Below are positions 34,401-40,400 of a DNA stretch of 64,000 nucleotides, one piece after another. Position 1 is the stretch's first letter. Every line of letters begins with the position of its first letter. Made by a program: the position numbers and the translations under genes. Where the stretch lies: contig CM072908.1 in NCBI GenBank assembly GCA_037013685.1, positions 2,059,001 to 2,123,000 on the forward strand. The letters are read 5' to 3'. The notes under the pieces are model-generated. The model did not search any database. It saw nothing but the letters and a program-made list of their open reading frames with translations, and had not been told where the DNA came from. The stretch is from Acridotheres tristis (Eukaryota > Chordata > Aves > Passeriformes > Sturnidae).

Positions 34401-37400
34401 CGGGATATTTTTTTTTACACCACGCCAGCTCCTCCCTGTTTTTTTTTTTTTTTTTCCCCAAGATGGGATCCCTGTTCCTGGCAGGAATTCTTTGCCAGGA
34501 TTGTCCCTCCAGGACAGATTATTTAGGACCGGGCTCACCTCTCTGCCGGCGCCTGCGGGTGAGGAGCACCACGATGATGAGGAGGACGAGGAAGAGCAGC
34601 AGGGTGGCCAGGACGTAGCCCAGCTGCTGGAAAAAATGCATCCTGCTCTCGGGGATGATGACATTGATGACATTGTGACCCCTGACCACGTTGGGATCTG
34701 AGGGCAAGGAAAGCAGAGAAAAGCAGGATGGCAGCGGGAATGCTCGGGGAGGAGGGGGAATTGGGAATTGCGAGAATTAAAGTCGATTTAATTAAAGTCA
34801 AGTCGATTTAATTAAAGTCAAGTCGATTTACAGCACCTCTGGCAGGTGGCAGATGTTGTGCCCTTCACCAGGATTTAACAGGATGTCCCTTCCCTGGGAT
34901 CAGAGCGGGAAATTGCCACAGAGGGGGAATTTCAGAGCAAAAATTCCGAAACTTCAGAGCAACCCCAAACTTTCCAGAGGGTCACACAAACCTCCCCTGG
35001 GTCCCTCTCAACACACACTCCACACTGCTCTGCCTCCAGACACCATCCCCTGCTTGCCAAGGGTTATAATTTATGCAGTGGGAAGAGTTTTCAATGCCAA
35101 AAAAAAAAAAAAAAAAAGCCCAAAAAAACCCTAACTTCCTTTCAAATGAAATAAAAATCGATAAAATAAATAAATCCCCCCCCCACCACCCCCTAAAAAA
35201 AAAAAACAAAACCCACAGAGGAAAGCCAAGATTCCATTCCTTTCGTGGGTGCAGCAGGATTTCTGTTCCACAGCACGGGGGAAGGGGAGAATTGAAGAGT
35301 ATTCAATTCAATTGAATTCAGTTTTGAATTCAATTCAAAACTTTTAAGTGGAACTTTTTTTTTCTTTTTTTTTTTTTTTTTTTGGTAGATCACAAATAAA
35401 TAGGTCAATGTTTTACACATGTAAAGAGGAAATGACTTCTCTGCTTGCAGCAGTCAGAGGAATGGAGAAACCAGCCCAGGCACGGATGGAATCCCACAAT
35501 CTGGGATTTTTAAATTTTTTTTTATTTTTCCTCCAAAACAGAGCTGAAATGACACCTTCACCCCTCGCAGGGAATTTTCACAGAGCACCAGGCAAGAACA
35601 GGATGGAACCCTCACCTCTCATTCCCTTGGGAGCTCCCCCTGCCATTACCCAGAGGGAAAAAGGGGAAAATGGGGAAATTCCTGAAAAGCCTTCACCATC
35701 TTCCTCTCCCTCTATGGCAGAGAAATCCCATTATTTTATCCAACTAAAGGGTGAGAATTTGGCTTTTCCCAGTGGGAATTCCTGCAAACCCTCAAGAGGA
35801 GAGGTCACTGATCTGCAGCTGGGGTGATGCCATTGCTGGTGATGTTCATCACCTTCCTCTCCCTCTATGGCAGAGAAATCCCATTATTTTATCCAAATAA
35901 AGGGTGAGAAACTGGCTTTTCCCAGCGGGATTTCCTGCAGAGGGGACAGAGCACCGACCTGCAGCTGGGGTGATGCCATTGCTGGTGATGTTCACCACCT
36001 CCCTCTGTGATAGAGGAATTTATCCAACTCTATGGCAGAGAAATCCCACGATTTTATCCAACTAAAAGGAGAGAATCTGCCTTTTCCCAGCGGGATTTCC
36101 TGCAGAGGGGACAGAGCACTGACCTGCAGCTGGGGCTATGTTGTGTATGGTGATGTTCACCACCTCCCTCTGTGACAGAGGAATTTATCCAACTCCATGG
36201 CAGAGAAATCCCACTATTCTATCCAACTAAAAGGACAGAATCTGGCTTTTCCTGGCCAGAATTCCTGTAAACCCTCCACAGCAGAGACCACTGACCTGCA
36301 GCTGGGGCTATGACCTTGGTGATGATGTTCATCACCTCCCTCTGTGACAGAGGAATTTATCCAAGTAAAAGGAGAGAATCTGCTTTTCCCAGTGGGATTT
36401 CCTGCAAAGGGGACAGAGCACTGACCTGCAGCTGGAGTGATGCCATTGCTGGTGATGTTCACCACCTTCCTCTGTGATAGAGGAATTTATCCAACTCTAT
36501 GGCAGAGAAATCCCACTATTCTATCCAAATAAAGGCCAGAATCTTGCTTTTCCCAGCAGGATTTCCTGCAGAGGGGACAGAGCACTGACCTGCAGCTGGG
36601 GTGATGCCATTGCTGGTGATGTTCACCACCTTCCTCTGTGACAGAGGAATTTATCCAACTCCATGGCAGAGAAATCCCACGATTTTATCCAACTAAAAGG
36701 ACAGAATCTGGCTTTTCCTGGCCAGAATTCCTGTAAACCCTCCACAGCAGAGACCACTGACCTGCAGCTGGGGCAATGTTGTGTATGGTGATGTTCACCA
36801 CCTTCCTCTGTGACAGAGGAATTTATCCAACTAAAGGGCTAAAAATCTGCCTTTTCCCAGTGGGATTTCCTGCAGAGGGGACAGAGCACTGACCTGCAGC
36901 TGGGTTAACGCTGTTGCTGATGATGTTCACCACCTTGCTGTCCCTCTGTGACAGAGGAATTTATCCAACTAAAAGGAGAGAATCTGCCTTTTCCCAGCGG
37001 GATTTCCTGCAGAGGGGACAGAGCACTGACCTGCAGCTGGGGCAATGTTGTGTATGGTGATGTTCACCACCTCCCTCTGTGACAGAGAAATTTATCCAAC
37101 TCCATGGCAGAGAAATCCCACGATTTTATCCAAATAAAAGGAAAGATTCTGGCTTTTCCTGGCCAGAATTCCTGCAAACCCTCCACAGCAGAGACCACTG
37201 ACCTGCAGCTGGGGCTATGACCTTGGTGATGATGTTCATCACCTCCCTCTGTGACAGAGGAATTTATCCAAGTAAAAGGAGAGAATCTGCTTTTCCCAGT
37301 GGGATTTCCTGCAAAGGGGACAGAGCACTGACCTGCAGCTGGAGTGATGCCATTGCTGGTGATGTTCACCACCTTCCTCTGTGATAGAGGAATTTATCCA

Positions 37401-40400
37401 ACTCTATGGCAGAGAAATCCCACGATTTTATCCAACTAAAAGGAGAGAATCTGCCTTTTCCCAGCGGGATTTCCTGCAGAGGGGACAGAGCACTGACCTG
37501 CAGCCGCCTTGCCGCCGCCGCCGCTGATGTTCACCACCTTGCTGTCCCTCTGCGGCTCCAGCACGGCCAGGTGGTAGATCCTGCGTTCGTGCAGCCCGCA
37601 GTAGTGGTGGTGCAGGTGACACGAGTAGGTTCCCTCGTCGGCGCTCTCCAGGTGCGAGATGCGCAGCGAGAAATCGCCGGCGGCGAAGGCGGCGCGGCTC
37701 ACGTTCATTTTCTGCCGCAGGAACTGCGGGCCGTACGAGCGGCGCTCCCCGGACGCGTACAGATCCACCAGGCGGTCAGCACGGTCCTGCCAATCGGTAA
37801 AAAACCAAAAAAAAACCCCGTTCTAATCACGGGCAAAAGCCCTGTGATCGATTAAAGTGAGGATGTTGAGTCGTGGTTTGATGATCGGGGTCGCGGCTCT
37901 TTGGAGGAGTTGTCGGAACTTTGGTGATCAGAGCAAGACGGGCTGTACATCGTTTGGCAAGTGATGTGACAAGGGCGCCGTGATTTTGTCATCCTGCTCT
38001 GTGTAACTTTAGAGAAGTTTCTCATGAGGACAAGGAAGAACCCTGGCAAGAACAACATTAAGGTAGAAATGTGTATGCAAGCAATCCGAATGTGCCTGTT
38101 GCTTGCTAAGCGAATAAAAAGCCATTGGAACAGAAAATAAACGGAGCTTGCTTTATCAATCATTTTATCGATCCTATTGATTGTCCGTGTGCCTGCGTGT
38201 TTATTCACCGGCGGCGACACGGGAGTCACCTCCCAAAGGCGTGACCGCCCCGAACGAGGTCCTTTGCCGTCTATTTATTCCCCAATATTTTACATAAAAT
38301 ACATATTCATAAGCCCAGCACCTCCCATCTCCATTTGATATTAAAATGAGCCCGTTCGTCCTTCACGCGTGCGAGGTTCTTCTCTTGAATTTGGGTCGGT
38401 GGTCTCGAAGGATGAAGTCAGGAGAGTCTTCATCAGGTCTCGGTGACCCCCTGGCACGATCCAAGGCTTCATCCTTCGTGATTAACGGTTTATTATTTTT
38501 ACCTTCTTCTGTACGTGAATTTATAAAGTGTAGGGACACATATTGAGAAATTAAGATAATTACAGCCTGAGAAATATTCCAGGCTGGAGCTTCTCAGCTC
38601 TGTTCCCGGTCCAGCTCAAGGCTAAGGGAGAATTTCTCCCAGGGTGATAATTTGGTCAAAATAAAAAGGAATTAATAACAAAATCAAAGCCTTGTTGTGG
38701 TGTGTGCCCAGGCCCTGGCCATGGGGTGTCTTCTCTCTGAACCCATCACCTTTTCTCTGCTCTGGGAGTTGCAGTCCTGCTATAAAACCAAGAGTGTTCC
38801 TGAATAAACTCGGCTCTTTCTATCACGACAGACGCCCACGGAGCTGTGCATCTTATTTTTTAAAGGGTTAAACCCCCTTCCCACGGCTACAACAAAGCAG
38901 CTAATTATCCCAATTAGCTCTAACCTAAGCATCTAGCAATCATTAACCAACCATTCACCTACCTTACATCCTGGCCATAGAAACTAATTTTACCCTTAGC
39001 AAAAAAGTGAACATTTTTAAAAGCCGTGATTCACCTGGGGCACGCCGGGGGGCTGCCGGTCCCAGTGCACCACCTGCTGCTCCTCCTCGCTGTGTCTCTC
39101 GGTCCAGATGTGCTGCCTGTTGACACACGGCAGGGTCACCGTGCTGCCCTCCCGAGCCACCAGCACCGGCTTCTCGCCGTCCCAGTGCTCGCTGGCATCC
39201 TCTCCTGGTGAAAAAAAAAAAAACGGGAGCCGCGCTCATTAAATTGTAACTGTGCGAGCGAAAGTGTAAAAAAAAAAAAATGATTGGAAAGCTGAGATCC
39301 CTCTTAGACACTGGAACCCTGAATTCTGCATCAGGGACACCCAGAGATTGCTCCCAGAGCCTGGAATCCTGAATTCTGCATCAAGGACAACCAGAGATTG
39401 CTCCCAGAGCCTGGAATCCTCAATTCCACATCAAGGACACCCAGAGATTGCTCCCAGAGCCTGGAATCCTGAATTCTGCATCAGGGACACCCTGAGATTG
39501 CTCCCAGATCCTGGAATCCTGAATTCCAGGTGTCAGGGGACACACCTGAGATTGCTCCTAGATCCTGGAATCCTCAATTCCAGGTGTCGAGGACACACCT
39601 GAGTTCCCTCCTAGACCGTGGAATCCTGAATTCCAAGTGTCAAGGACAGCCAGGCACACCTGGGATTGCTCCTGGACCCTGGAATCCGAATTCCACATGT
39701 CAAGGACACACCTGAGATTGCTCCCAGACCCTGGAATCCCGAATTCCAGGTGTCAAGGACACACCTGAGATCCCTCCTAGACCATGGAATTCTGAATTCC
39801 AGGTGTCAAGGACACACCTGAGATCCCTCCTAGACCATGGAATTCTGAATTCCAGGTGTCAAGGACAGCCAGGCACACCTGGGATTGCTCTCTTGGAAAC
39901 CCCTAAAGCTCCACAAGAACAGAATCCCATAACACACCCCCTCCCAAAATCTTCCAAGTGCCCACGTGGCACAGCTTGAACACGACCCTGGCTTTTCCAC
40001 ACTTATTTCAGCCCTTAGTTAAAAAAAAACAAAAAAACAAAAAAAACCACCTTTATCCTCCTCATCCTTGGCCATTTCATGAAGCAAAGCCACTTTCTGC
40101 TCCTCCTAACTCCGAGTTAATCTCCTGCTCCAGAAAAGCAGGAAACAAATTCCCTGCTCAGGCTAAGAATGGAACCAGGCTCTTCATCCCCAATCCTCTG
40201 AGCAGGAAATGCTTTCCTACCCACAAAGGCCTGAATTACTGGAGGAGCTGAAGCTGCACTGCTCTGTTTGGCTCTGGAGAAGGAAAAAGAGAAACTGCAG
40301 AGCCCAGAGGAGCACCCTGGGGCTCTCGGGGTGTTTTTATAGCCCTGGAAATGCCCAGAGGAGCAGCCTGGGGCTCTCAGGGTGTTTTTATTGCCCTGGC

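What the first reader, a model, noticed from the sequence alone, without database searches (positions are those of the whole stretch)
35700..37497. Array of copied exon ends and splice donors in MXRA8 intron 6
Eleven tandem copies of the 3' end of exon 6, each with a related coding stretch, a GTCAGT donor (ten of eleven intact) and a pyrimidine-rich acceptor-like tract, lie between the second Ig exon and the transmembrane exon. The true donor is therefore followed by ten near-identical competitors. By my count, using one copy as an exon (for example 46 or 106 nt) would shift the frame before the membrane segment, so inclusion would act like a poison exon or give a protein without its anchor. 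Whether any copy is used is unknown. The array may be a passive minisatellite born from the exon edge.
Basis: partly seen in the sequence, partly recalled or inferred. Interest (0 to 1): 0.75.

Follow-up and report, generated by a model that had tools for sequence, protein, structure and literature searches.

The report
Intron array preserving an old exon end
In a starling-family bird, the end of one exon of the gene MXRA8 has been copied eleven times into the next intron, and the copies resemble the exon end of related birds more than the working exon now does, so the intron looks like a small fossil record of the exon, probably without a job in splicing.

Summary
Real, and placed almost as described. 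Intron 6 of MXRA8 (minus strand; common myna, Acridotheres tristis, or a very close relative) holds 11 tandem units of 130-172 nt. Each repeats the last ~46 nt of exon 6, its donor and the start of the intron. Nine donors equal the true one, one reads GTCGGT, one has lost its GT. All 56 single-cassette forms tested lose the membrane segment. Use in RNA could not be tested; one protein search found none.

Two points go beyond the finding. (1) The kind is known: "exon stuttering", described in chicken in 2026 (PMC12954441). By that paper's BLAST rule one exon 6 copy passes, and so does a second event here (exon 3's acceptor edge in intron 2). (2) The copies, not the exon, resemble relatives' exon ends: 51 of 52 scored stalks fit a copy type better. 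Another starling, Lamprotornis superbus, reads KVVNITSKGIAPAA; five copies read NITSNGITPAA, this exon KVVNISGGGGKAAA. The only difference from the deposited myna protein (1 of 412 residues) is one glycine at this edge.

Best reading: a mostly passive, locally born minisatellite keeping older versions of a source whose edge has been rewritten.

The parts
37498..37786 (-). MXRA8 exon 6 (second Ig domain and stalk); source of the array; its last 14 codons read KVVNISGGGGKAAA
   Evidence: translation, splice phases and PDB matches to MXRA8; exons 3-11 equal the Acridotheres tristis protein P0001 at 411 of 412 residues
35710..37504 (-). tandem array: 11 units of 130-172 nt, higher-order period about 466 nt
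37333..37378 (-). copy 1, reads KVVNITSNGITPAA, donor GTCAGT at 37332
37203..37248 (-). copy 2, reads EVMNIITKVIAPAA, donor GTCAGT
37031..37076 (-). copy 3, reads EVVNITIHNIAPAA, donor GTCAGT
36894..36945 (-). copy 4, reads DSKVVNIISNSVNPAA; 28 nt identical to exon 6 (36948-36921); donor GTCAGT
36762..36807 (-). copy 5, reads KVVNITIHNIAPAA, donor GTCAGT
36590..36635 (-). copy 6, reads KVVNITSNGITPAA, donor GTCAGT
36426..36471 (-). copy 7, reads KVVNITSNGITPAA, donor GTCAGT
36296..36341 (-). copy 8, reads EVMNIITKVIAPAA, donor GTCAGT; its unit is identical to that of copy 2
36124..36169 (-). copy 9, reads EVVNITIHNIAPAA, donor GTCAGT
35959..36004 (-). copy 10, reads EVVNITSNGITPAA, donor changed to GTCGGT
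35813..35866 (-). copy 11, reads KVMNITSNGITPAA, donor destroyed (ATCAGT)
35692..35713 (-). truncated twelfth copy, or the intron sequence that first paired with the exon edge
   Evidence: 22-nt hit of exon 6, 86%, 20.3 bits, below the chance maximum of 26.3 seen in shuffles; row 'tail'
34539..34697 (-). exon 7, stalk and transmembrane segment, normal partner of exon 6
44476..44605 (-). second, separate event in the same gene: copy of the 5' edge of exon 3 with its acceptor, in intron 2 (92% over 130 nt; source 44155-44284)

Best explanation
Intron 6 of MXRA8 carries a locally born minisatellite of the kind called exon stuttering: the 3' edge of exon 6, its donor and the start of the intron were duplicated in tandem and spread to 11 copies by unequal exchange or slippage, including block duplications of about 466 nt. 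After some or all copies arose, the exon edge itself changed to a glycine/alanine-rich, GGC-repeat sequence that is probably still changing in length, while the intron copies kept earlier versions. In pre-mRNA the proximal donor is most likely used and the copies are removed with the intron; inclusion would give frame-shifted messages without a membrane anchor, so copies should be near-silent in mature mRNA. Shown: anatomy, copy number, frame outcome, resemblance of copies to other species' exon ends. Inferred: order of events, exchange mechanism, splicing silence.
For: Tandem units spanning the exon/intron border with a higher-order period. Exon edge matched in the adjacent intron above the published screen threshold (56.0 bits for copy 4; exon 3 edge in intron 2, 77.8 bits; maximum in 20 shuffles 26.3). 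In 51 of 52 scored relatives one of four copy types matches the stalk better than exon 6 does, 1 tie. Lamprotornis superbus stalk: 12 of 14 residues equal to the ITSNG type, 8 of 14 to the exon. Five of the last 28 positions have one letter in all 11 copies and G in the exon. Two myna sequences differ in this protein (412 residues compared) only by one Gly at this edge. The contig is minisatellite-rich: mean 20% (median 13%) of ten 10-kb samples of C26 against 0.2% of ten samples of C1. All 56 acceptor/donor pairs tested lose the anchor.
Against: Copied donors equal the true donor, and copied acceptors reach 11.7 against 10.15 for exon 7 on a simple matrix recalled from memory, so silence is not explained by weak sites. 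The exon-rewriting argument rests on one other starling protein, a partial gene model, and on no DNA from relatives. Four of 52 stalks (P0008, P0038, P0049, P0062) score lower against the copy type ITIHN alone than against the exon. The 51-of-52 count takes the best of four copy types, which favours the copies. Nine of 11 exon 6 copies give no BLAST hit of 20 nt to the present exon. The published account says stuttering leaves the exon unaltered, which does not fit here.
Confidence: 0.8

Rival explanations
1. Regulated poison-exon array: one or more copies are included in some tissues or states, lowering MXRA8 by nonsense-mediated decay or making a soluble ectodomain.
For: Nine donors identical to the true donor; acceptor-like sites of score 9 or more are 11.67 per kb in the array against 1.8 per kb on the minus strand of 30-63.9 kb (array included); exon 6's own acceptor scores only 4.83. 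The 17 single cassettes carry an early stop 179-448 nt before the last junction.
Against: The same two to five acceptor-like sites recur with each unit, so the density is not independent evidence. No protein with the frame-shifted tail of the one form searched, though decay products leave few proteins, so this is weak either way. Nine of ten short cassettes are 46 nt, shorter than most vertebrate exons (recalled). No conservation across species could be tested.
Confidence: 0.1
2. Cassette archive: the intron copies act as donors of sequence for the exon edge by gene conversion or unequal exchange, so the stalk of this receptor can change without harm to frame or splice site.
For: A variable core (12 of 18 columns) between better conserved flanks (30 of 100; Fisher p=0.006); the distance from GGTGGTGAACATCA to the donor is 41 nt in all 11 copies and the exon; four different in-frame cores; the stalk differs much among songbirds.
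Against: The present exon core is like none of the copies, so no exchange into the exon is seen. Columns are not independent because copies share descent. Two of the four cores lose the N-glycosylation sequon.
Confidence: 0.06
3. Ratchet-point use: each CTGCAG|GTCAGT is a joined acceptor and donor, so the intron could be removed stepwise with no change of the message.
For: AG|GT junction in 10 of 11 copies; acceptor scores of 5.0-6.7 at seven of these ten, and 5.08 at the broken one.
Against: Intron 6 is only 2,800 nt whereas ratchet points are described as abundant within long introns in Drosophila (PMC8605326, abstract); three of ten junctions score below 5.
Confidence: 0.02
4. Assembly artefact.
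For: Tandem arrays are error-prone; two myna sequences differ at this edge.
Against: Units differ in a structured way with a higher-order period and four core types; no second MXRA8 locus among 14 candidates in the assembly; the deposited myna protein, from a contig of another length, carries the same exon edge apart from one codon. Its intron could not be read.
Confidence: 0.02

Closest known systems
Exon stuttering / sequence stuttering in chicken (Hron et al. 2026, PMC12954441; abstract, sections 7, 9 and 16 and found passages read)
   Same: Lateral part of a coding exon with its splice site repeated in tandem in the adjacent intron; repeat blocks of tens to hundreds of bases; copy number (11) inside their 1-44; span of about 1.7 kb near their median of 1,751 bp; minisatellite-rich chromosome.
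   Different: Songbird instead of chicken; 8.05-Mb contig, larger than the 2.5-6.8 Mb given for chicken dot chromosomes; source exon edge has changed, so only 1 of 11 exon 6 copies passes their threshold; copies resemble relatives' exon ends. MXRA8 is not named in the main text; their gene list (Fig. S5) was not readable here.
[quoted passage not shown] recalled, then only its title seen in the reference lists of PMC2572611 and PMC2915984)
   Same: Tandem repeat made of splice donors.
   Different: There, by its title, the donors serve a transcript; here no use is shown. The paper was not held, so units were not compared; that the gene is IFI6 (6-16) is recalled.
Intronic ratchet points (PMC8605326; abstract and passages read)
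   Same: Joined AG|GT sites.
   Different: Short intron, no intermediates or conservation shown, weak acceptors.
Gene-structure changes by tandem repeats in human segmental duplications (PMC2812944; passages read)
   Same: Minisatellites, some at exon-intron boundaries, altering gene structure.
   Different: Human paralogues; novel introns or longer exons rather than copies of an exon end spread through an intron.

Membership tests
Exon stuttering (Hron et al. [quoted passage not shown]
   11 direct copies of the exon 6 edge in intron 6
Exon stuttering (Hron et al. 2026) | blastn-short hit of at least 20 nt and at least 42.1 bits in a neighbouring intron | tested here: met
   Of four hits of 20 nt or more, two pass: exon 6/intron 6 copy 4 (56.0 bits) and exon 3/intron 2 (77.8). 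Copy 11 (30.2) and the truncated twelfth copy (20.3) fail; the other nine exon 6 copies give no such hit
Exon stuttering (Hron et al. 2026) | Copied region spans the exon border (source within 1 base of it in over 90% of their cases) | tested here: inconclusive
   By alignment every copy runs to the donor position; by their BLAST measure the exon 6 hit ends 27 nt short of the border because the core diverged, while the exon 3 hit starts at base 1 of the exon
Exon stuttering (Hron et al. 2026) | Intron heavily covered by simple repeats | tested here: met
   67% of intron 6 lies in TRF arrays; but intron 2, site of the exon 3 event, 0%
Exon stuttering (Hron et al. 2026) | Intron length differs among individuals | not testable with these tools
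   one assembly only; the neighbouring exon edge differs by one codon between two myna sequences
Exon stuttering (Hron et al. 2026) | Source exon left intact (their observation rather than a screening criterion) | tested here: not met
   exon 6 edge differs from another starling and from relatives, and in Gly number between two mynas
Exon stuttering (Hron et al. 2026) | Preference for dot chromosomes (190 of 236 introns; association, not criterion) | tested here: inconclusive
   contig C26 is 8,045,593 bp; homology to a chicken chromosome was not tested
Minisatellite with used splice donors (1995 interferon-induced transcript) | Repeated donors used in transcripts | not testable with these tools
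   no RNA data; protein search for one frame-shifted form negative
Poison exon | Inclusion creates a premature stop | tested here: met
   17 of 17 single cassettes; 56 of 56 pairs lose the membrane segment
Poison exon | Regulated inclusion, usually with sequence conservation | not testable with these tools
   no RNA and no relatives' intron DNA

The most novel reading that the evidence does not exclude
The array is an evolving archive of a receptor's stalk: exon-edge copies of different ages are kept in the intron in frame and at constant length, while the exon edge is repeatedly rewritten, partly by exchange with the array. Exon stuttering would then reshape coding edges rather than leave exons intact, and would help to explain why the MXRA8 stalk differs so much among songbirds.
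Probability: 0.1. Interest if true: 0.8.

Novelty: new variant of a known kind. Interest (0 to 1): 0.52.

Why it matters
Exon stuttering has one description that I found, in chicken (PMC12954441; of 20 papers holding any of three related terms, 12 were listed and only this one held the word). This case shows it in a songbird, twice in one gene. Its copies look older in sequence than their own source, so intron copies can be read as a record of past exon ends. It also shows that a screen using the present exon as query misses most copies when the source has changed (1 of 11 passes). If stuttering also alters exon edges, it is a source of protein change and not only of intron length.

Tried and rejected
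A first comparison of stalks cut several sequences at the wrong place and is superseded. The poison-exon reading was not made the leading one because no use could be shown and conservation could not be tested. Acceptor density was considered as evidence of selection and dropped, since the same few sites recur with each unit. In-frame multi-copy inclusion was tested for combinations of 2, 3, 6 and 9 of the ten short cassettes: 0 of 45, 0 of 120, 0 of 210 and 0 of 10 keep the membrane segment; other numbers and long cassettes in combination were not tried. Single cassettes: all pairs of 36 acceptor-like sites of the array listed with the ten intact copied donors, 20-300 nt apart: 0 of 56 keep it. 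Extension of exon 6 was tested to 3 of 10 later donors; all stop 20 codons after the normal end. The array at 57553-58171 has AG|GT in several units but was not tied to an exon. Of five literature searches on minisatellites and splice sites or songbird repeats, aimed at a title I recalled, found that title in reference lists and one search found the stuttering paper; one search found nothing. Of 667 homologues, 120 were listed and 53 were used; one (P0044) had no anchor. The 67 listed rows not used are mainly mammals and amphibians plus unnamed transcript-derived rows and P0001 itself.
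Full report
What is there. The gene on the minus strand is MXRA8. Exon 6 gives MXRA8 chains as best PDB matches (192.5 bits), and the joined exons 3-11 equal a deposited Acridotheres tristis (common myna) protein at 411 of 412 residues. The window lies on contig C26 (8,045,593 bp) of a 1.04-Gb assembly in 85 contigs; no second MXRA8 locus appeared among 14 candidates. 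The deposited protein comes from an 8,275,027-bp contig, so the two sequences most likely come from different assemblies or haplotypes.

The array. After the true donor at 37497 come 11 further donor positions 130-172 nt apart. Nine read GTCAGT, one GTCGGT, one ATCAGT. Each unit holds the last 46 nt of an exon 6 end (52 nt in copy 4) and runs through the donor position into intron sequence; in 8 of 11 units a pyrimidine-rich stretch ending in TGCAG follows, in the other 3 a different start. In most units TTGGATAAA...CACAG precedes the next copy. Units 1-3 recur as units 7-9 (95.1%, 100%, 95.3%), and unit 10 is 98.8% like unit 1. So whole blocks have been duplicated, in keeping with the 466-nt period.

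Frame. Exon 6 ends in phase 1. Ten short cassettes (nine of 46 nt, one of 52 nt) and seven of eight long ones (106-141 nt; the eighth has no intact donor after it) were put in singly: all 17 stop early, 179-448 nt before the last junction. A wider check of 36 acceptor-like sites against the ten intact copied donors gave 56 cassettes of 20-300 nt; none keeps the membrane segment. Combinations of 2, 3, 6 or 9 short cassettes never keep it (0 of 385).

Splice signals. The sequence signals alone therefore do not explain silence. No use is shown: a search with the frame-shifted tail of one cassette form found no relative among 106 candidates, but decay products rarely reach protein sets. RNA was out of reach.

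The copies look older than their source. In frame, after the shared VVN or VMN, the copies read ITSNGITPAA (5 copies), ITIHNIAPAA (3), IITKVIAPAA (2) or IISNSVNPAA (1); the exon reads ISGGGGKAAA. Seven of the 52 relatives, all birds that are not songbirds, read exactly VVNLTTHNIAPAI. With a 14-residue piece, 51 of 52 scored relatives (birds, other reptiles, amphibians) match one of the four copy types better than the exon, one ties; taking only the ITIHN type, 48 of 52. The closest relative found, Lamprotornis superbus of the same family Sturnidae, reads EPQRDSKVVNITSKGIAPAADPN: 12 of 14 residues equal to the ITSNG type, 8 of 14 to the exon. At five of the last 28 positions all 11 copies agree and the exon has G. 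The sole difference between the two myna sequences over 412 residues is one glycine in this stretch. So the exon edge has most likely been rewritten towards GGC repeats and still varies. Caveats: the Lamprotornis protein is a partial gene model, and relatives' intron DNA could not be read.

Variable core. Among the 11 copies, 12 of 18 core columns vary against 30 of 100 flanking columns (Fisher p=0.006; a column permutation without the first intron block gave 0.00024). Columns share descent, so this is suggestive only. It would fit copies taken from the exon at different times, or exchange of cores.

Context. Ten 10-kb samples of C26 average 20% minisatellite coverage (median 13%, range 1-71%), ten of C1 0.2%; six window tiles average 30%. 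Within MXRA8 the 5' edge of exon 3, with its acceptor, is also duplicated once in intron 2 (92% over 130 nt). The exon 6 array is thus one of two exon-edge duplications in a locus prone to arrays.

Known kind. Hron and colleagues (PMC12954441; [quoted passage not shown] By their rule copy 4 (56.0 bits) and the exon 3 copy (77.8 bits) pass; the other ten exon 6 copies do not. They report exons as unaltered; here the source edge has changed. This is therefore a member by its core criterion, with a new trait.

Verdict. Its value lies less in competing donors than in a record of earlier exon ends beside a changed exon.

Noticed in passing
44155-44284 and 44476-44605: The 5' edge of MXRA8 exon 3, including its acceptor, is duplicated once in intron 2 (92% over 130 nt; weaker repeats extend the duplication to about 320 nt).
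   Followed up: partly
39292-39890 and 43274-43683: Two arrays in introns 4 and 3 have very similar units (CTGGAATTCAGGATTCCAGGATCTGGGAGCAATCTCAGG-like), so one minisatellite seems to have seeded two introns of the gene.
   Followed up: no
57553-58171: Array of about 89-nt units, several with CCCACAG|GTAAAA-like sites on the plus strand, that is joined acceptor and donor sequences; no exon was tied to it.
   Followed up: no
1-64000: About 28% of the window lies in tandem arrays by a hand-made union of TRF rows; 30% over six tiles for periods of 7 or more, against 0.2% in ten samples of the 115-Mb contig C1.
   Followed up: partly
37505-37530: A (GGC)4 run within exon 6; the deposited myna protein has one glycine fewer, the only difference in 412 residues.
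   Followed up: yes
P0041 (Cercotrichas coryphoeus MXRA8 model): The deposited partial protein runs on after ...PAPAA into GKWDLSLGKKENG and lacks exon 7, as if intron 6 sequence had been read as coding; probably a gene-model error.
   Followed up: no
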